From: Rhodospirillales bacterium
GTDB taxonomy: Bacteria; Pseudomonadota; Alphaproteobacteria; Reyranellales; Reyranellaceae
DNA length: 64,000 nt
Assembly: GCA_016185145.1 (NCBI GenBank)
Contig: JACPOB010000081.1
Coordinates: 1-64,000, forward strand
Reading direction: 5' to 3'
Shown here: positions 8,481 through 55,900 of the stretch, one piece after another
Position numbering within the stretch: position 1 is the first letter of the stretch
Layout: every line of letters begins with the position of its first letter
Made by a program: the position numbers and the translations under genes
The notes under the pieces: model-generated
The model's input: only the letters and a program-made list of their open reading frames with translations
Databases searched by the model: none
What the model was told of the DNA's origin: nothing

Positions 8481-9329
8481 ATGAAGGATCTTGCAGGAAA
8501 GACGGCGTTCGTGACGGGCGCTGCCTCAGGCATCGGGTTCGGGATCGCCTCCGCCCTGGCCCAGGCCGGCGTGAAGGTCATGCTTTGCGACATCGAGGAG
8601 GCGGCTCTGCCGGCGGCGCTCGAGAAGCTGAGGTCGACCAACGCCGACGTCGACGGCGTGCGAGCCGACGTCTCGCTCAAGGGCGAGCTCGCGGCGGCGG
8701 CCGAGGCCACTCTCGCGCGCTACGGCAAGGTCCACATCCTGGTCAACAATGCCGGCGTCGGCGGCGGCGGGCCCTACGGCATGTGGAGCGATGCCGCGTG
8801 GGACTGGACGCTGGGCGTGAACCTGCGGGCCGTCGTATGGGGCATCGAGATCTTCGGCCCGCTGATCGAGCGGCACGGCGAGGGCGGGCACATCGTCTCG
8901 ACCGCCTCGATCGCCGGCCTGATCTCCGGCGGCAGCATCCCCTACAATGTCTCCAAGTACGGCGTGGTCGCGCTGTCGGAGGGCCTGCGGCTGGAACTCG
9001 CGCCGCGCGGCATCGGCGTCTCGGTGCTGTGCCCGGGCTACATCCGAACCCAGATCGCCGATTCGCGCCGCAATCTGCCGGAGCGCTTCGCCGGCAAGGT
9101 CGTCCGGCCGCCGGCAACCGGCCCCGTCGCCGAGCGCATCAAATCCATGCGCGACCGCCTCGCCCAGGGCATCGATCCGCTTTATGTCGGCGAACTGGTC
9201 CGCGAAGGCATCGAGGACGACTGGCCCTACATCTTCACCGACAACGAGCTCGAGCCGTACATCGAAGCACGCTTTGCCGCAATCAAGGAGGGCTTCGACC
9301 GGATTCGCGGACGTGTCCCGAGGCGTTGA
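8481..9329 (+). CDS. SDR family oxidoreductase
   Basis: A 282-residue short-chain dehydrogenase. TGAASGIGFG near residue 12, LVNNAGVGGGG, STASIAGL and YNVSKYG (YxxSK) are all present. The C-terminus is about 30 residues longer than a minimal SDR, with a region (EDDWPYIFTDNELEPYIEAR) typical of SDRs acting on larger substrates. The ATG at 8481 follows GGGGGGACGCAC. Monocistronic between the divergent aldolase and the convergent cupin gene. Confidence 0.9.
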   Translation: MKDLAGKTAFVTGAASGIGFGIASALAQAGVKVMLCDIEEAALPAALEKLRSTNADVDGVRADVSLKGELAAAAEATLARYGKVHILVNNAGVGGGGPYGMWSDAAWDWTLGVNLRAVVWGIEIFGPLIERHGEGGHIVSTASIAGLISGGSIPYNVSKYGVVALSEGLRLELAPRGIGVSVLCPGYIRTQIADSRRNLPERFAGKVVRPPATGPVAERIKSMRDRLAQGIDPLYVGELVREGIEDDWPYIFTDNELEPYIEARFAAIKEGFDRIRGRVPRR

Positions 9330-9356
9330 GACGTCGAACGCCCTAGTCTTACTGAG

Positions 9357-9809
9357 TCAGAGGGGATTGGGTCCCAGCACTTCCCAGCCGGACTCCTCCA
9401 GCCGCTTCTTGAGGTCGCCGTCGGGCGGCCGCTCGAGCATCCCCTCGACGAAGCGGCCGGCGCCGGCCGGGGTATAGAGGAACACGACCCGGCCCGGTTG
9501 GCTGCCGCTGTTCTTCCAGGCGTGCGGCACGTTGCGCGGCAGGAAGGCGCAGGTGCCTGGCCCGCCGGTCGTGACCTCCTCGCCGATCTTGAACGTGAAC
9601 TCTCCCTCGAGCACCCAGGCGATCTCGTCGCTGTCGCGATGGAGATGGAGCCAGCTGTTCTTGGAGCCGGCCGGCACCGTCTGCTCGAACAGCGTGACGT
9701 TCTCGCCGGTCTCGCGGCCGAACAGCTTCATGGACATGCCTTGGCCCGACGCTTCCTCGAGATGCTTGCCGCCGCCCGGCGGCACGACGACACCCTTGCT
9801 CATGGTCAT
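9357..9809 (-). CDS. Cupin domain protein
   Basis: A 150-residue single-domain cupin. The metal motif is in SWLHLHRDSDEIAWVLEGEF (HxH then E), with the second motif FLPRNVPHAWKN supplying the third histidine. AGGAGG precedes the ATG at 9809; a second ATG two codons in is also possible. No DNA-binding domain, so probably a small metal-dependent enzyme or sugar/acid-binding protein. The interval 9810-9980 downstream of the start contains only a short orphan frame. Confidence 0.85.
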   Translation of the reverse strand: MTMSKGVVVPPGGGKHLEEASGQGMSMKLFGRETGENVTLFEQTVPAGSKNSWLHLHRDSDEIAWVLEGEFTFKIGEEVTTGGPGTCAFLPRNVPHAWKNSGSQPGRVVFLYTPAGAGRFVEGMLERPPDGDLKKRLEESGWEVLGPNPL

Positions 9810-9980
9810 GGGGGCCTCCTCGATGCGGACGGGACGAGGGTAGGCCCGCTACCAGGCAGCCACAACCACGATCTCGCCGACCACCGGCAGCATGACCGTC
9901 GACTACTTTCCGTTCGGCCACGCATCCCTGGTCCGCCTCGTCGACCGCTTCGTCACAGAGATGCGCGGCATCAACCGGAC

Positions 9981-11141
9981 TCAGCCCCAGAGCCGCTTGC
10001 TGGCGATCGCCGCGCCGTCGCGCATCGCTTCGAGCTTGGCCCAGACCACGTCCTCGGAGACCTGGGTGTCGCCGACGATGGTGCCGAAGCCGCAATCGGT
10101 GCCGGCCATGACGCGCTCGCGGTCGCCGACGGCGCGCACGGCGCGCTCCAGCCGTTCGGCGATCACCTGCGGGTGCTCGACGTAGTTGTGCGTCGATTCG
10201 ACGACGCCGCAGACCAGGGCCATGTGGTCGGGCAGCTTCTGGGTGCGGAAGGCGTCGATCTCGTGGCTGTGGCGCGCATTGGCGAAGGGCAGGCAGAGCG
10301 CACCGGCCTTCACCTGGAAGCAGACGGGCAGCACGTCGGGCGCCGGCACGTCGTTCACGTGCGGGCTGTCGCGGTTGCCCCAGCAGGCGTGGAAGCGCAC
10401 CCGCTCGGCCGGGATGCCGGCCAGCGCCTCGTTCGGCGCCGCGACATGCATCTCCATCGCTGCGATGAATTTCGGCAGCGGCTCGTCCTGGAAGTAGCCG
10501 GCGCGCTCGATACCGAGGTCGGGCGAGTCGATCTGCAGCACGTGGCCCTGCGCCACGATGAACTCGTATTCGCGGCCGAGCTCGCGGGCGAGGGCGAAGA
10601 CGTAGGCCTCGTGGCTGTCGTAGTGCTGGTTCTGCAGCGAGCAGGCGGCGAAGCCGGGCGAGACGGCCGTGACGAAGGTTTCCGTGAAGCGCCTTGTCTG
10701 GCGCCGCAGCGCGCGGGCGAAGGCGTCGAGCTCGGCCTTCGCGCCGTCCAGGCTCTCGTAGCGCACCGGGCCGATCGCGGCCGGGAAGCCGTAGACGTTG
10801 AGCCGGCGCACGCCGCGCGCCTGGTAGTTCTGCCACCACTTGGGAAAGTGCTGCATGTCGAGGATCGGCCGACGCTTCGATTGGCCGCCGAAGCCTGACA
10901 TGCGCCCGGTGATGTAGCCGAAGAAGGTGGAGCGCGGCATCTCGCCGTCGTTGCCGACATCGATGCCGCAGTCGAGCTGGCGGCGCACGATCAGGTCCAT
11001 CGCCTCGTCGGTCAGCGCCGGGATTTGCGCGGCGTCGACAGGCTTGCCCTCGGCCTGGGCGACCAGCAGGTCGGCCAGCACGTCCGGCCGCGGCAGGCTG
11101 CCCATGTGGGTGGTCAGGATGCGATCCGTGCTGCGTTTCAT
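9981..11141 (-). CDS. MetE-core (cobalamin-independent methionine synthase II-like) protein
   Basis: A 386-residue protein equal to the C-terminal catalytic barrel of MetE without the N-terminal domain. It opens with RILTTHMGSLPRP, the family's first strand. The zinc ligands appear kept: RFHACWGN (HxC) and GTDCGFGT. Stand-alone MetE-core proteins include methyltransferases and alkyltransferases on thiols (for example epoxyalkane:CoM transferase), so the substrate need not be homocysteine. The ATG at 11141 begins MKRSTDRILTTH. Tail-to-tail context is absent; the LysR gene lies just upstream on the same strand. Confidence 0.85.
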   Translation of the reverse strand: MKRSTDRILTTHMGSLPRPDVLADLLVAQAEGKPVDAAQIPALTDEAMDLIVRRQLDCGIDVGNDGEMPRSTFFGYITGRMSGFGGQSKRRPILDMQHFPKWWQNYQARGVRRLNVYGFPAAIGPVRYESLDGAKAELDAFARALRRQTRRFTETFVTAVSPGFAACSLQNQHYDSHEAYVFALARELGREYEFIVAQGHVLQIDSPDLGIERAGYFQDEPLPKFIAAMEMHVAAPNEALAGIPAERVRFHACWGNRDSPHVNDVPAPDVLPVCFQVKAGALCLPFANARHSHEIDAFRTQKLPDHMALVCGVVESTHNYVEHPQVIAERLERAVRAVGDRERVMAGTDCGFGTIVGDTQVSEDVVWAKLEAMRDGAAIASKRLWG

Positions 11142-11207
11142 GCCGTCAACCAGGGTCCAGATTAGCAATGCGCGACACCCTTCGCGAGTCGCGGTCGGGC
11201 CGCCGGA

Positions 11208-12215
11208 TCATCGCGCTCGCCGTTTCGAGGGGGACTTGCGATCGGGCTGCCGCGCCGCCCGGGCCTTGGGGCGTACGAGCTTTTCGAACTGCTCTTTGGT
11301 GCGCTGTTCTCCCGAAGCAGTCGTTGCCCGCAGGAAGCGTGTGACGACATTGGCGAACACTTCCACGCGGCGCGGGGGATGGGCATTGGCATGGATCACC
11401 CAGACGCCCAGCTTGCCGCCGCCCGCCGGAAGGCTCTCGTAATCCGACAGCAACTGGACGAGCAAACCCGCGCGAATGTCGGCCGTGGGCAGCGGGCCGC
11501 CCAAGTGGGCAATCCCCAGTCCCTCGATCGCCATCGTGCGCAGCAGCAGCCAGCTGTTCGTCTGCACGTACGCATCGGGCTTGAACTCGGTCACGACGCC
11601 GGTCTTCGAGCGCAGTCGCCATACCGATTCGACCAGGGAACCGTGGACGAGGCATCGGTGGTGATCGAGATCGGCCGGCGTCCGCACACCGGCATGGCTC
11701 TTGATGTAGGAAGGAGAGGCGCAGACGAAGCGGCGGTAGTCATAGGCGCGTCGGCCGACGAGATCGGCCCTCGGCGACATGCCGGCATGAATGGCGAGAT
11801 CGCACGGCCCATCGAGCTCTCCCGGCGGATAGTCGCTCGTGAGCACATCGATGGTGATCTCCGGAAAGTCGCGCGAGAACTGCCTCAGTATGTCCGGCAG
11901 GTAGGAGGAGGCGATCCAGGCATCCATCGCCACCCGCACGCGGCCGCGCGGCACCGACTGCAACGCCCCGAGCATTTCCCGCAGCCTGGTCTCCCGCTGC
12001 AGCGATTCTTCGGCCCAGCGCAGATACACCCGGCCGGCCTCGGTCAAGGCAAGCGAGCGGGTCGAGCGGCTGACCAGGGTGACTCCGAGGTCCGCCTCGG
12101 CGCGGGCGAGATGACGGCTGGCGATCGACGGCGACATTTTGCGACGGCGGGCGGCAGCCGCCAGGCTGCCCGTCGCGGCGATGTCGGCGAACAACGCCGG
12201 AAAGTCGGATGACAT
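11208..12215 (-). CDS. LysR family transcriptional regulator
   Basis: A 335-residue LysR regulator. Its winged HTH is at about residues 5-60 (ADIAATGSLAAAARRRKMSP, SIASRHLARAEADLGVTL), followed by the effector domain (GRVRVAMDAWIASSYLPDIL). An unusual basic tail of about 40 residues (KARAARQPDRKSPSKRRAR) extends beyond the family norm. It is divergent from the amidohydrolase operon at 12366, with a palindrome between, and very likely regulates it. Confidence 0.92.
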   Translation of the reverse strand: MSSDFPALFADIAATGSLAAAARRRKMSPSIASRHLARAEADLGVTLVSRSTRSLALTEAGRVYLRWAEESLQRETRLREMLGALQSVPRGRVRVAMDAWIASSYLPDILRQFSRDFPEITIDVLTSDYPPGELDGPCDLAIHAGMSPRADLVGRRAYDYRRFVCASPSYIKSHAGVRTPADLDHHRCLVHGSLVESVWRLRSKTGVVTEFKPDAYVQTNSWLLLRTMAIEGLGIAHLGGPLPTADIRAGLLVQLLSDYESLPAGGGKLGVWVIHANAHPPRRVEVFANVVTRFLRATTASGEQRTKEQFEKLVRPKARAARQPDRKSPSKRRAR

Positions 12216-53138: not shown

Positions 53139-53513
53139 ATGCCTCGCCGTGTCGCCTCCAAGCCCCCCAAAGGCCAAGCCCGCATCCACGTTGTGCCCAT
53201 GGAGGGCCGTTGGCAGGTCAAGCACGAAGGCGCGAGCCGCGCCGTTGGCGTCTACAGCAGTCAGGCCGAGGCGACCGAAGCCGCAAAATCGAACCTGCGC
53301 CGTTCGGGTGGCGAGTTGATGGTTCAAGGGCGGGACGGTCGCATCCGCGAGAGCATGACGCTCGGCCGCGATTCGATGGCCAAGATCGCTGCAATAGAGG
53401 GAATCCACCTGTCGCCGCAATCGATGCGTACGCTCAGAGAACTCGATCGCAGGGACGCCTCGAGCGAAGAGCGTCGCCGGTCGATCGCCCGCCAGTTCAG
53501 GAAAAAAGTCTGA
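53139..53513 (+). CDS. DUF2188-domain antitoxin of a Fic module
   Basis: A 124-residue protein. Residues about 14-65 are a DUF2188 domain (RIHVVPMEGRWQVKHEGASR ... GGELMVQGRDGRIRESMT). The C-terminal AAIEGIHLSPQSMRTLRELD with SSEERRRSIARQFRKK resembles the short helical antitoxin that inhibits Fic toxins. Its stop codon overlaps the position where the Fic gene should start (CTGA), the usual coupled arrangement. The toxin is broken, but this gene is intact. Confidence 0.75.
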   Translation: MPRRVASKPPKGQARIHVVPMEGRWQVKHEGASRAVGVYSSQAEATEAAKSNLRRSGGELMVQGRDGRIRESMTLGRDSMAKIAAIEGIHLSPQSMRTLRELDRRDASSEERRRSIARQFRKKV

Positions 53514-54088
53514 GCACCGACTTCTACGACGCCGAGCCGGATCGCTACTGCTACGCTGGTTCGACAGTGTTGAAGAATAAGCTCGGCTTGCGTGATCAGG
53601 CTGAACTGGACGCCTTCGAGGCGCTTAGTGTCGCGGTCAGAGCTGAGGAGCCGCTTCCCTCCGGCCGCTTTTCACTGCACATTATCGTGCCGTGCACCGC
53701 CATCTGTTTCAGGATGTATACGGGTGGGCGGGCCGATTCCGAACCGTTCGAATGACCAAGGATCAGAGTCCCTTCTGCTTTCCCGAGAACGTTGCCAGTG
53801 AAATGCGAGGACTATTCGTCCGCCTGCATAACGCCGATCCCCTAAGGGGGAGGACGGCAGAGGATTTCGCTGAGGAGGTTCCTTGCTTATCTGAATGCGA
53901 TTCATCCGTTCCGAGAAGGCAACGGACGAACCCAACTTACCTTCACCGCGCTGCTCGGCGTCCAGGCTGGCCATCCCCTTAGACTTTCGCGATTGGACCC
54001 GGCCAGCTTCCTTCAGGCGATGATCGACAGCTTCTTCGGTGACGAATCGCAGTTGAGCCGACAATTGCGGGATCTTGTGATCGATTGA
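53510..54088 (+). pseudogene. Fic/DOC family protein, disrupted by two frameshifts
   Basis: Three overlapping frames together give a full Fic protein. It begins STDFYDAEPDRYCYAGSTVL (frame from 53510), jumps one base near 53680 into AVHRHLFQDVYGWAGRFRTV, and jumps back near 53879 into FLAYLNAIHPFREGNGRTQL, ending at 54088. The HPFxxGNGR AMPylation motif is intact. One base appears lost (LHHYRA coded as CACAT) and one gained, and the start is CTG, with the antitoxin overlap reading CTGA instead of ATGA. Sequencing error is possible, but three changes at once suggest decay. Confidence 0.8.
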
Positions 54089-54263
54089 ACGTCGCGGACT
54101 TACTTCGTCTGCCGTCTGTCGCCGAAACGCTCATCCCTGCTGCACGCGGCATGGGCGGCGAACGAGGCGTAAGCGGCGGCATTGTGGATCGTGTTCTCCG
54201 GCGTCTGCAGGTCGTAGCCTGAGTGTAGCGTAGCCTAGCGCGGGCGCCGCTGGCCCCTTCAAG

Positions 54264-55298
54264 TCATTGCTTTTCGGAGCCTTTGCTCAACGAGCCGATG
54301 CCGAGCGATCCGTCGGAAGAGGAGGATGGCGACGGCGATGGCGCCTCGCTCTCCGCCGCCGGCGCGGCCGGCTCGGCCACGACGTCGTCCAGGAACGTCA
54401 CCGACGGCACGAAGAACAGCGTGCCGGTCACCGGCCGGCTGAAATCGAGCAATCGGTCGTAGTTGCCGGGCGGCAGGCCCACGAACATGTTCTCCAGCAT
54501 GCGCTCGGTGCGGCTGGGCGAGCGGGCGTAGCCGCAGAAATAGGTGCCGTACTCGCCCTTGCCGACCTCGCCGAACGGCATGTTGGCGCGCACGATCTTG
54601 AGCTCCTGGCCGTTCTCCTCGATCACCGTCAGCGCATTGTGGGCGAAGGAGGGCTTCACGGCATCGTCCAGCTCGATGTCCGAGAGCTTGGTGCGGCCGA
54701 CGAAGCCTTCCTGCTGCTCGACGGGGACGGCGTTCCAGCCTTTCAGGTCATGCAGGTATTTCTGCACGATCACGTAGCTGCCGCCGGCGAAGGCGGCGTC
54801 CTCCTCGCCGATCACCGTGGCGTCGAGCGCCTCCTGGTCGACGGGGTTCTCCGTGCCGTCGACGAAGCCCAGCAGGTCGCGGTTGTCGAAATACTTGAAG
54901 CCATGCACCTCGTCGGCCACGGCGACCGCGCCATCGAGCCGCGACATGATCTGCGCGGCGAGCTCGAAGCAGAGGTCCATGCTGGCGGAGCGGATATGGA
55001 AGAGGAGGTCGCCCGGCGTGGCGACGGCGTGGTGCTGGCCGCGGATCTCGCGGAAGGGATGCAGCTCCTTGGGCCTCGGTGCGCCGAACAGGCGGTCCCA
55101 GGCGTTGGAGCCGATGCCCATGACACAGTTCAGCCGGGCGTCGAGATCGCGGAAGCCGACCGAGCGCACCAGCGCCGACAGGTCGGCGCACAGGCCTTTC
55201 ACCGCGGCCTCGGCCCCATCGTTCATCGTCACGACGAGGAAGATGGCGGCGCGCGTCAGCGACGCGGCCACCGGTTGGGAATTCGTCGACGGCACGCG
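54264..55298 (-). CDS. DyP-type peroxidase with encapsulin cargo-loading peptide
   Basis: A 345-residue dye-decolourising heme peroxidase (YfeX-like class). LLGFVDGTENPVDQEALDAT has the catalytic GxxDG aspartate, SFAHNALTVI the proximal heme histidine and IVRANMPFGEVG the distal arginine. After the catalytic domain comes a Pro/Ala/Ser-rich linker and the ending DGSLGIGSLSKGSEKQ, which matches the known cargo-loading tail of encapsulin-packaged DyP (DGSLGIGSLK-type). GTG 55298, preceded by TATGGAGCG, is preferred; an ATG at 55406 lies inside the palindromic repeat. No encapsulin gene is in the window. Confidence 0.9.
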   Translation of the reverse strand, partial: RVPSTNSQPVAASLTRAAIFLVVTMNDGAEAAVKGLCADLSALVRSVGFRDLDARLNCVMGIGSNAWDRLFGAPRPKELHPFREIRGQHHAVATPGDLLFHIRSASMDLCFELAAQIMSRLDGAVAVADEVHGFKYFDNRDLLGFVDGTENPVDQEALDATVIGEEDAAFAGGSYVIVQKYLHDLKGWNAVPVEQQEGFVGRTKLSDIELDDAVKPSFAHNALTVIEENGQELKIVRANMPFGEVGKGEYGTYFCGYARSPSRTERMLENMFVGLPPGNYDRLLDFSRPVTGTLFFVPSVTFLDDVVAEPAAPAAESEAPSPSPSSSSDGSLGIGSLSKGSEKQ

Positions 55299-55368
55299 CG
55301 CGCTCCATACTGACCTGATCGGGGCATCGCCATTTTGCGGCGAGAGGCTGTGAAGAGCAATGCTGGGC

Positions 55369-55496
55369 TCATCGTCTTCCGGACCGCGAGCTTCCAGCTC
55401 GCTCATGATTCATGAGCGAGCTGGAAGCTCGCGCGTGCTTCCAGCTCGCTCATGTTTCATGAGCGCGCTGGACGCTCGCGGTCCGGAAGACGATGA
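55369..55496. repeat. Long palindromic repeat (TCTTCCGGACCGCGAGC arms)
   Basis: Perfect 23-bp terminal arms (left at 55369-55391, right at 55474-55496) enclose two nested hairpins built on GAGCTTCCAGCTCGCTCATG. Related short copy at 3231-3282. It separates the peroxidase from the small gene at 55504, and supplies a spurious upstream ATG for the peroxidase. Confidence 0.85.
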
Positions 55497-55503
55497 CGCG
55501 CCT

Positions 55504-55806
55504 CTAGCCGTTCCCCGCCACGATCGCGTCTAACGTCGCGCGAAGCTCGGCCACCGCCACCGGCTGATCACTTTCCGGACGGTTGGCCGCTTCGGGCGGA
55601 AGAGGGGCCACGCGCTCGGCGTTGGCCATCGCCGCCTGCCCCGCCTCGTGCAGGTCGTCCTGGAGGCATCGCAGAGCGACAATGACGTGATAGCTCTCGC
55701 GTCGATTGGGTGACCTCTTGGCGCGCTCGAGCCCCCTGACGAAGCGGTCTATGCGCTGCGCCAGGGCATGCCGTTCCGCCGAGCCCGCTGCGATGCCGTC
55801 GCTCAT
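55504..55806 (-). CDS. Small helical protein of unknown function
   Basis: A 100-residue hypothetical protein starting MSDGIAAGSAERHALAQ with AAGGCAACGG before the ATG. Strongly helical (RIDRFVRGLERAKRSPNRRE, then VALRCLQDDLHEAGQAAMAN), with no signal or membrane segment. Base use matches neighbouring genes. It lies between the MarR and DyP genes on the same strand. I do not recognise the family; it could be a chance frame. Confidence 0.5.
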   Translation of the reverse strand: MSDGIAAGSAERHALAQRIDRFVRGLERAKRSPNRRESYHVIVALRCLQDDLHEAGQAAMANAERVAPLPPEAANRPESDQPVAVAELRATLDAIVAGNG

Positions 55807-55900
55807 TCCGTTGCCTTGGGTGATGTTGGCCAGTCTCTTTCTCTCGGTCGGAAGAGGGCCGGCCGTCAAGTGCCATTGGAGCGCGGTCCGGAAGCGGGCG

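What the first reader, a model, noticed from the sequence alone, without database searches (positions are those of the whole stretch)
54264..55298. Encapsulin-targeted DyP peroxidase without an adjacent shell gene
Seen: a DyP peroxidase ending in a Ser/Pro linker and DGSLGIGSLSKGSEKQ. Known: DGSLGIGSL-type tails load DyP into encapsulin nanocompartments, and the shell gene normally lies beside the cargo gene. Here the flanks are a broken Fic module, a palindromic repeat and a small helical protein. Inference: either the shell is encoded elsewhere, or the neighbouring region was rearranged and the cargo orphaned.
Basis: partly seen in the sequence, partly recalled or inferred. Interest (0 to 1): 0.78.

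Follow-up and report, generated by a model that had tools for sequence, protein, structure and literature searches.

The report
Peroxidase cargo encoded apart from shell
A soil bacterium (Reyranella) carries a peroxidase with the address tag for a protein nanocage, but the only cage gene in its genome lies far away beside an iron-storage protein with the same tag, so the peroxidase has probably lost its own cage and now relies on the iron-storage one.

Summary
In detail: 54264-55295 (-) encodes a B-type DyP peroxidase ending in a Ser/Pro linker and DGSLGIGSL-SK, with no encapsulin gene beside it. The shell is not missing. The assembly (Reyranella-like) has exactly one family 1 encapsulin, on another contig, in an operon with an encapsulated ferritin (EncFtn) whose tail has the identical core DGSLGIGSLR. 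The same split arrangement holds in the isolates R. soli, URHD0017 and Enhydrobacter aerosaccus, so it is an old trait of the lineage, not a local break. A congener (G016) keeps both a DyP-encapsulin operon and the EncFtn-encapsulin operon, and shares the TetR/DinB flank with the orphan loci. This points to loss of the DyP-type shell gene in place. The tail is under purifying selection (97% identical against 35% for the linker). Among 80 related DyPs, tails occur almost only where a shell exists in the genome. Best reading: an in-trans "secondary cargo" that probably loads into the EncFtn shell. Caveat: in the window's subclade the basic residue after GSL, needed for loading in Klebsiella, is Ser, so weaker or lost loading is a real rival. 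Secondary cargos are known; DyP re-homed to an EncFtn shell is a variant I did not find described.

The parts
54264..55295 (-). DyP-type peroxidase CDS (343 aa, GTG start, stop included)
   Evidence: residues known from other DyPs present in the alignment: GFVDGTENP, AHN, VRANMPFG
54315..54383 (-). flexible Ala/Pro/Ser linker VVAEPAAPAAESEAPSPSPSSSS
   Evidence: fast-evolving, 35% identity among orphan DyPs
54282..54314 (-). encapsulin targeting peptide DGSLGIGSL-SK (Ser at the position usually Lys/Arg)
55303..55306 (-). probable ribosome-binding site GGAG, conserved upstream of the GTG start
53139..54089 (+). DUF2188 gene and frameshifted Fic gene, inserted between DyP and the LCM methyltransferase gene relative to R. 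soli; incidental
55386..55480 (.). palindromic repeat upstream of DyP; core has 317 copies in the genome, so not specific to this system

Best explanation
The gene encodes an encapsulin cargo DyP that lost its own shell gene in this lineage of Reyranella and is now a secondary cargo encoded in trans. Its C-terminal DGSLGIGSL peptide docks in the inner pocket of the only encapsulin the genome encodes. That shell is made with an encapsulated ferritin (EncFtn) carrying the same peptide. A minor share of particles, or of sites within particles, would then carry a heme peroxidase with the ferroxidase, so that H2O2 consumption and iron storage are placed in one compartment. Shown here: the tail, the single distant shell with its EncFtn, the conserved pocket residues, selection on the tail, and the synteny with a congener that keeps the DyP-shell operon. 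Inferred: physical loading, co-residence and physiology.
For: One encapsulin in the genome (NF041155 313 bits), adjacent to EncFtn with tail DDDGSLGIGSLRSDK. The contigs belong together: the genome-specific repeat is on both, the GC is alike (66.8 and 66.2%), and the nearest match of the shell is R. soli, which also holds a close DyP. The same split occurs in R. soli, URHD0017, E. aerosaccus and two MAGs, with the EncFtn-shell operon elsewhere. G016 has DyP directly before a second shell (50% identical) plus the EncFtn-shell operon, and the orphan loci share its TetR(-)/DinB(+) flank. The 8 Reyranella orphan DyPs form one clade (SH-aLRT 98) among encapsulin-linked proteobacterial DyPs. The motif has 97% amino-acid identity with 64 synonymous and 7 nonsynonymous pairwise differences, against 35% identity in the linker. 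Of 80 DyP loci, 50 have tail and adjacent shell, 22 have neither, 8 have tail only, 0 have shell only. Of the 22 tailless genomes, 21 have no encapsulin above the family cut-off; 7 of the 8 genomes with tail only have one elsewhere. Shell residues equivalent to Klebsiella Arg34, Asp38 and Asp229 are kept (PMC10960027).
Against: The residue after GSL is Ser in the window, R. soli and two close relatives, but Lys/Arg in 55 of the 58 tailed DyPs of the collection scan. In Klebsiella, Lys346Ala at this place abolished loading (PMC10960027), although the Asp38 partner was mostly dispensable. In M. tuberculosis the predicted in-trans cargos FolB and BfrB loaded in E. coli but were not found in native particles (PMC8635971). 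G004, with 90% identical DyP, has a tail but no encapsulin detected; it is a MAG that also lacks the gene flanking the shell.
Confidence: 0.6

Rival explanations
1. The tail is a decaying relic. After loss of its own shell, DyP works free in the cytosol, and the loss of the basic residue in the R. soli subclade marks the first step of decay.
For: Ser in place of Lys/Arg in the window's subclade; Lys346Ala abolishes loading in Klebsiella (PMC10960027); many relatives have untagged DyPs and no shell; G003, which has an EncFtn shell, has a tailless DyP and a second fragment.
Against: The eight motif residues are invariant in the four Ser-bearing species, while only 7 of 23 linker columns are; at the linker rate that would happen with P of about 7e-5 (crude, ignores composition and phylogeny). 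Tails seem to be lost when shells are lost.
Confidence: 0.25
2. DyP is loaded into a second, DyP-type shell that the assembly failed to capture.
For: The assembly is a draft in 201 contigs, 92% complete; G016 has two shells.
Against: R. soli, URHD0017 and E. aerosaccus (97-99% complete) also have only the EncFtn shell. The place after DyP where the shell would sit is covered by sequence here and in relatives and holds other genes.
Confidence: 0.07
3. The encapsulin contig is contamination, and the organism that owns the DyP has no shell.
For: Estimated contamination is 7.6%; relative G004 has the tagged DyP without a detected shell.
Against: The genome-specific repeat lies on both contigs; GC matches; the shell is 95% identical to that of R. 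soli, an isolate with the same orphan DyP.
Confidence: 0.03

Closest known systems
Classical DyP-encapsulin operon (Brevibacterium linens, Mycobacterium, Klebsiella pneumoniae; family 1)
   Same: B-type DyP, flexible linker, GSLxIGSL targeting peptide; nearest solved relative is Klebsiella 8u4z
   Different: No shell gene beside it; Ser instead of Lys/Arg after GSL
EncFtn-encapsulin operon (Rhodospirillum rubrum, Haliangium ochraceum)
   Same: The genome's only shell and its adjacent EncFtn are of this type, and the EncFtn tail core is identical to the DyP tail core
   Different: A DyP with the same tail is encoded elsewhere in the genome; not reported in the papers I could read
Secondary (in-trans) encapsulin cargos: EncC/EncD of Myxococcus xanthus, FolB/BfrB of M. 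tuberculosis
   Same: Tagged cargo encoded away from the core shell operon (PMC8229669)
   Different: There the extra cargos are ferritin-like or folate enzymes; here a normally core cargo (DyP) is the in-trans one and the core cargo is EncFtn

Membership tests
Encapsulin-associated DyP peroxidase | DyP fold by profile, close to structures of encapsulated DyPs | tested here: met
Encapsulin-associated DyP peroxidase | C-terminal GSLxIGSL peptide after a flexible linker | tested here: met
Encapsulin-associated DyP peroxidase | Basic residue directly after GSL (GSLxIGSLK) | tested here: not met
   Ser here, Lys at the next position; 55 of 58 tailed DyPs have Lys/Arg. So the peptide matches the motif only in its GSLxIGSL part
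Core cargo of a DyP-encapsulin operon | Shell gene adjacent to the cargo gene | tested here: not met
   not filed as core cargo
Secondary encapsulin cargo | Tagged protein encoded outside the core operon of a genome that has a family 1 encapsulin | tested here: met
Secondary encapsulin cargo | Present inside purified particles | not testable with these tools
   Needs particle purification
Family 1 encapsulin shell (gene on C4, outside the window) | Linocin_M18/encap_f1 profile and residues of the peptide pocket | tested here: met
   Arg34, Asp38 and Asp229 equivalents present

The most novel reading that the evidence does not exclude
Shell swapping: after losing its own shell, an encapsulin cargo enzyme was adopted by a 50%-identical shell of a different functional class because both share one address tag. 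This would give a natural mixed peroxidase-ferritin nanocompartment, with the Ser at the tag's end possibly lowering DyP's share relative to EncFtn. A second, unrelated alphaproteobacterial MAG (L013/L219) has the same combination of orphan tagged DyP and EncFtn shell, so the switch may recur.
Probability: 0.35. Interest if true: 0.6.

Novelty: new variant of a known kind. Interest (0 to 1): 0.45.

Why it matters
Encapsulin function is usually read from the gene next to the shell. Here the genome-wide view changes the reading of both loci: an "orphan" peroxidase is probably not orphan, and a "ferritin" compartment may also hold a peroxidase. The genus gives a natural series (operon kept in G016, shell lost in eight genomes, tail lost in G003, both cargos absent in others) that makes it testable whether cargo tags alone let enzymes move between shells, and how much the final basic residue of the tag matters in nature.

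Tried and rejected
Searched for remnants of the DyP-type shell downstream of the orphan DyPs with the G016 shell (tblastn, blastn): only chance matches. Considered the small helical gene upstream (55504-55812) as a dedicated partner: its family is spread over the genus, mostly without DyP, so not specific. Considered the palindrome and broken Fic gene as the cause of orphaning: rejected, since relatives without them are orphaned too. The third match of the tag pattern (contig C197, GRLGIGWL) recurs as near-identical DNA in many relatives and does not have the cargo sequence; not pursued. The absence of an encapsulin in G004 was checked: the gene flanking the shell is also missing there, so a gap or a larger deletion is possible. 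In K. saccharivorans (L050) the tagged orphan DyP has an altered core (GSLGICSL) and the genome has a second complete DyP-encapsulin operon, so it is a different case. No structure prediction was run, because close solved homologues exist.

Full report
Observation. The minus-strand gene at 54264-55295 is a B-type DyP peroxidase (Pfam Dyp_perox_N and _C; TIGR01413). Its best match among solved structures is the encapsulin-associated DyP of Klebsiella (8u4z, E = 3e-145). It ends in a Ser/Pro-rich linker and DGSLGIGSLSKGSEKQ. No encapsulin gene lies in the surrounding sequence.

Where the shell is. A search of the whole assembly (7.77 Mb, 201 contigs, 92% complete, 7.6% contamination) finds exactly one family 1 encapsulin, on contig C4 (NF041155 at 313 bits). 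Immediately upstream is an encapsulated ferritin, EncFtn (TIGR04535, PF22277), ending in DDDGSLGIGSLRSDKGESAK. The DyP in the window is the only match to the DyP N-terminal family in the assembly. The tag pattern occurs three times in the genome and two of these are the DyP and EncFtn tails. Contamination is an unlikely explanation: a genome-specific palindromic repeat (317 matches with up to 2 mismatches) lies on both contigs, GC is 66.8 and 66.2%, and both genes have close matches in Reyranella soli.

The same split in relatives. Among 61 genomes of the genus, EncFtn occurs in 46, and in 37 of the 38 EncFtn loci examined (some of them the same locus fetched twice) the encapsulin is in the same locus. 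A close DyP occurs in 10 genomes, counting a broken one. Eight of these (window, R. soli, URHD0017, E. aerosaccus and four MAGs) have a tagged DyP with no shell beside it. Six of the eight have the intact EncFtn-shell pair elsewhere. G020 (81% complete) shows only a 35-residue shell fragment. G004 shows no shell, but the gene flanking the shell locus is missing there too. G003 has a tailless DyP and a second fragment.

How it became an orphan. G016 (a single contig) has DyP directly followed by a second encapsulin that is 50% identical to the window genome's EncFtn-type shell, plus the EncFtn-shell operon. On the far side of that operon lie a TetR gene (-) and a DinB gene (+), in the same order and orientation as beside the orphan DyPs of the window, G004, R. 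soli, G078, URHD0017 and G070. In R. soli the next gene (LCM methyltransferase) starts 23 bases after the DyP; in G004 the TetR gene starts 29 bases after it. The eight orphan DyPs form one clade (SH-aLRT 98) within proteobacterial DyPs that are mostly shell-linked or tailless. The simplest history is one loss of the DyP-type shell gene in place. No remnant was found. G016 is not the immediate sister of the orphan clade in the quick tree, so the exact order of events is not fixed.

Is the tail still used? Two tests say it is probably under selection. First, among the eight orphans the GSLGIGSL motif keeps 97% amino-acid identity with 64 synonymous and 7 nonsynonymous pairwise differences (all 7 from one Ile/Val site in G070), while the linker just before it has 35% identity. 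Second, among 80 DyP loci from across bacteria, 50 have tail and adjacent shell, 22 have neither, none has a shell without a tail, and 8 have a tail without an adjacent shell. Of those 8, whole-genome searches find a shell in 7, all but G004. Of the 22 tailless, one (G003) has a shell above the family cut-off, and one (Mesorhizobium denitrificans) has a sub-threshold fragment with a stop. The loci come from one degenerate-pattern scan and are related to each other, so the counts are not independent trials.

The main doubt. In the window, R. soli and two near relatives, the residue after GSL is Ser, with Lys following in three of the four. It is Lys or Arg in 55 of 58 tailed DyPs of the collection scan (the window adds a fourth Ser) and in all 37 tagged EncFtn tails examined. 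In the Klebsiella system, changing this Lys to Ala abolished loading, although its partner Asp38 was mostly dispensable (PMC10960027). The pocket residues Arg34, Asp38 and Asp229 are kept in the Reyranella shell. Loading may be normal, weaker, or lost. The Mycobacterium tuberculosis precedent advises caution: two in-trans cargos that load in E. coli were not seen in native particles (PMC8635971).

Relation to the known. In-trans "secondary cargos" are an accepted class, with Myxococcus EncC and EncD the case shown in nature (PMC8229669). DyP is normally the core cargo beside its shell (1,505 systems, PMC8346489). I found no paper describing a DyP encoded in trans to an EncFtn-type shell, but the library holds only open-licence papers, and I did not read Giessen and Silver 2017. 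A second, unrelated MAG (L013, shell in L219) has an orphan tagged DyP plus an EncFtn shell, suggesting recurrence.

Verdict. Physical loading is likely but unproven. I rate it a new variant of a known kind, of moderate interest.

Noticed in passing
window 53514-54089 (+): A Fic gene split over three frames (HPFREGNGR motif readable in one frame only), after a DUF2188 gene; either a pseudogene or assembly errors. The pair is an insertion relative to R. soli, where the LCM methyltransferase gene lies directly beside DyP.
   Followed up: partly
window 55386-55480: REP-like palindrome whose 22-base core has 317 copies in the genome (up to 2 mismatches) and no exact copy in the DyP loci of relatives compared: possibly a recent, species-specific expansion.
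   Followed up: partly
window 55504-55812 (-): Small helical protein without a Pfam match, upstream of DyP in four sister genomes; paralogues spread through the genus away from DyP.
   Followed up: yes
L196 (G016) 8740-11928 (-): A molybdopterin oxidoreductase (formate dehydrogenase-like) gene lies beside the DyP-encapsulin operon, recalling the FDH gene of the Klebsiella DyP operon.
   Followed up: no
L050 and L218 (Komagataeibacter saccharivorans): Two tagged DyPs: one in a complete DyP-encapsulin operon, the other alone with an altered tag GSLGICSL.
   Followed up: partly
L221 (Mesorhizobium denitrificans): Sub-threshold encapsulin fragment with an in-frame stop in a genome whose DyP has no tail: a possible shell remnant with tag loss.
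   Followed up: no
G000:C197:19449-19471 and homologues: A near-identical 23-base match to the tag pattern (GRLGIGWL) recurs in many Reyranella genomes; not cargo-like, identity of the gene not determined.
   Followed up: no
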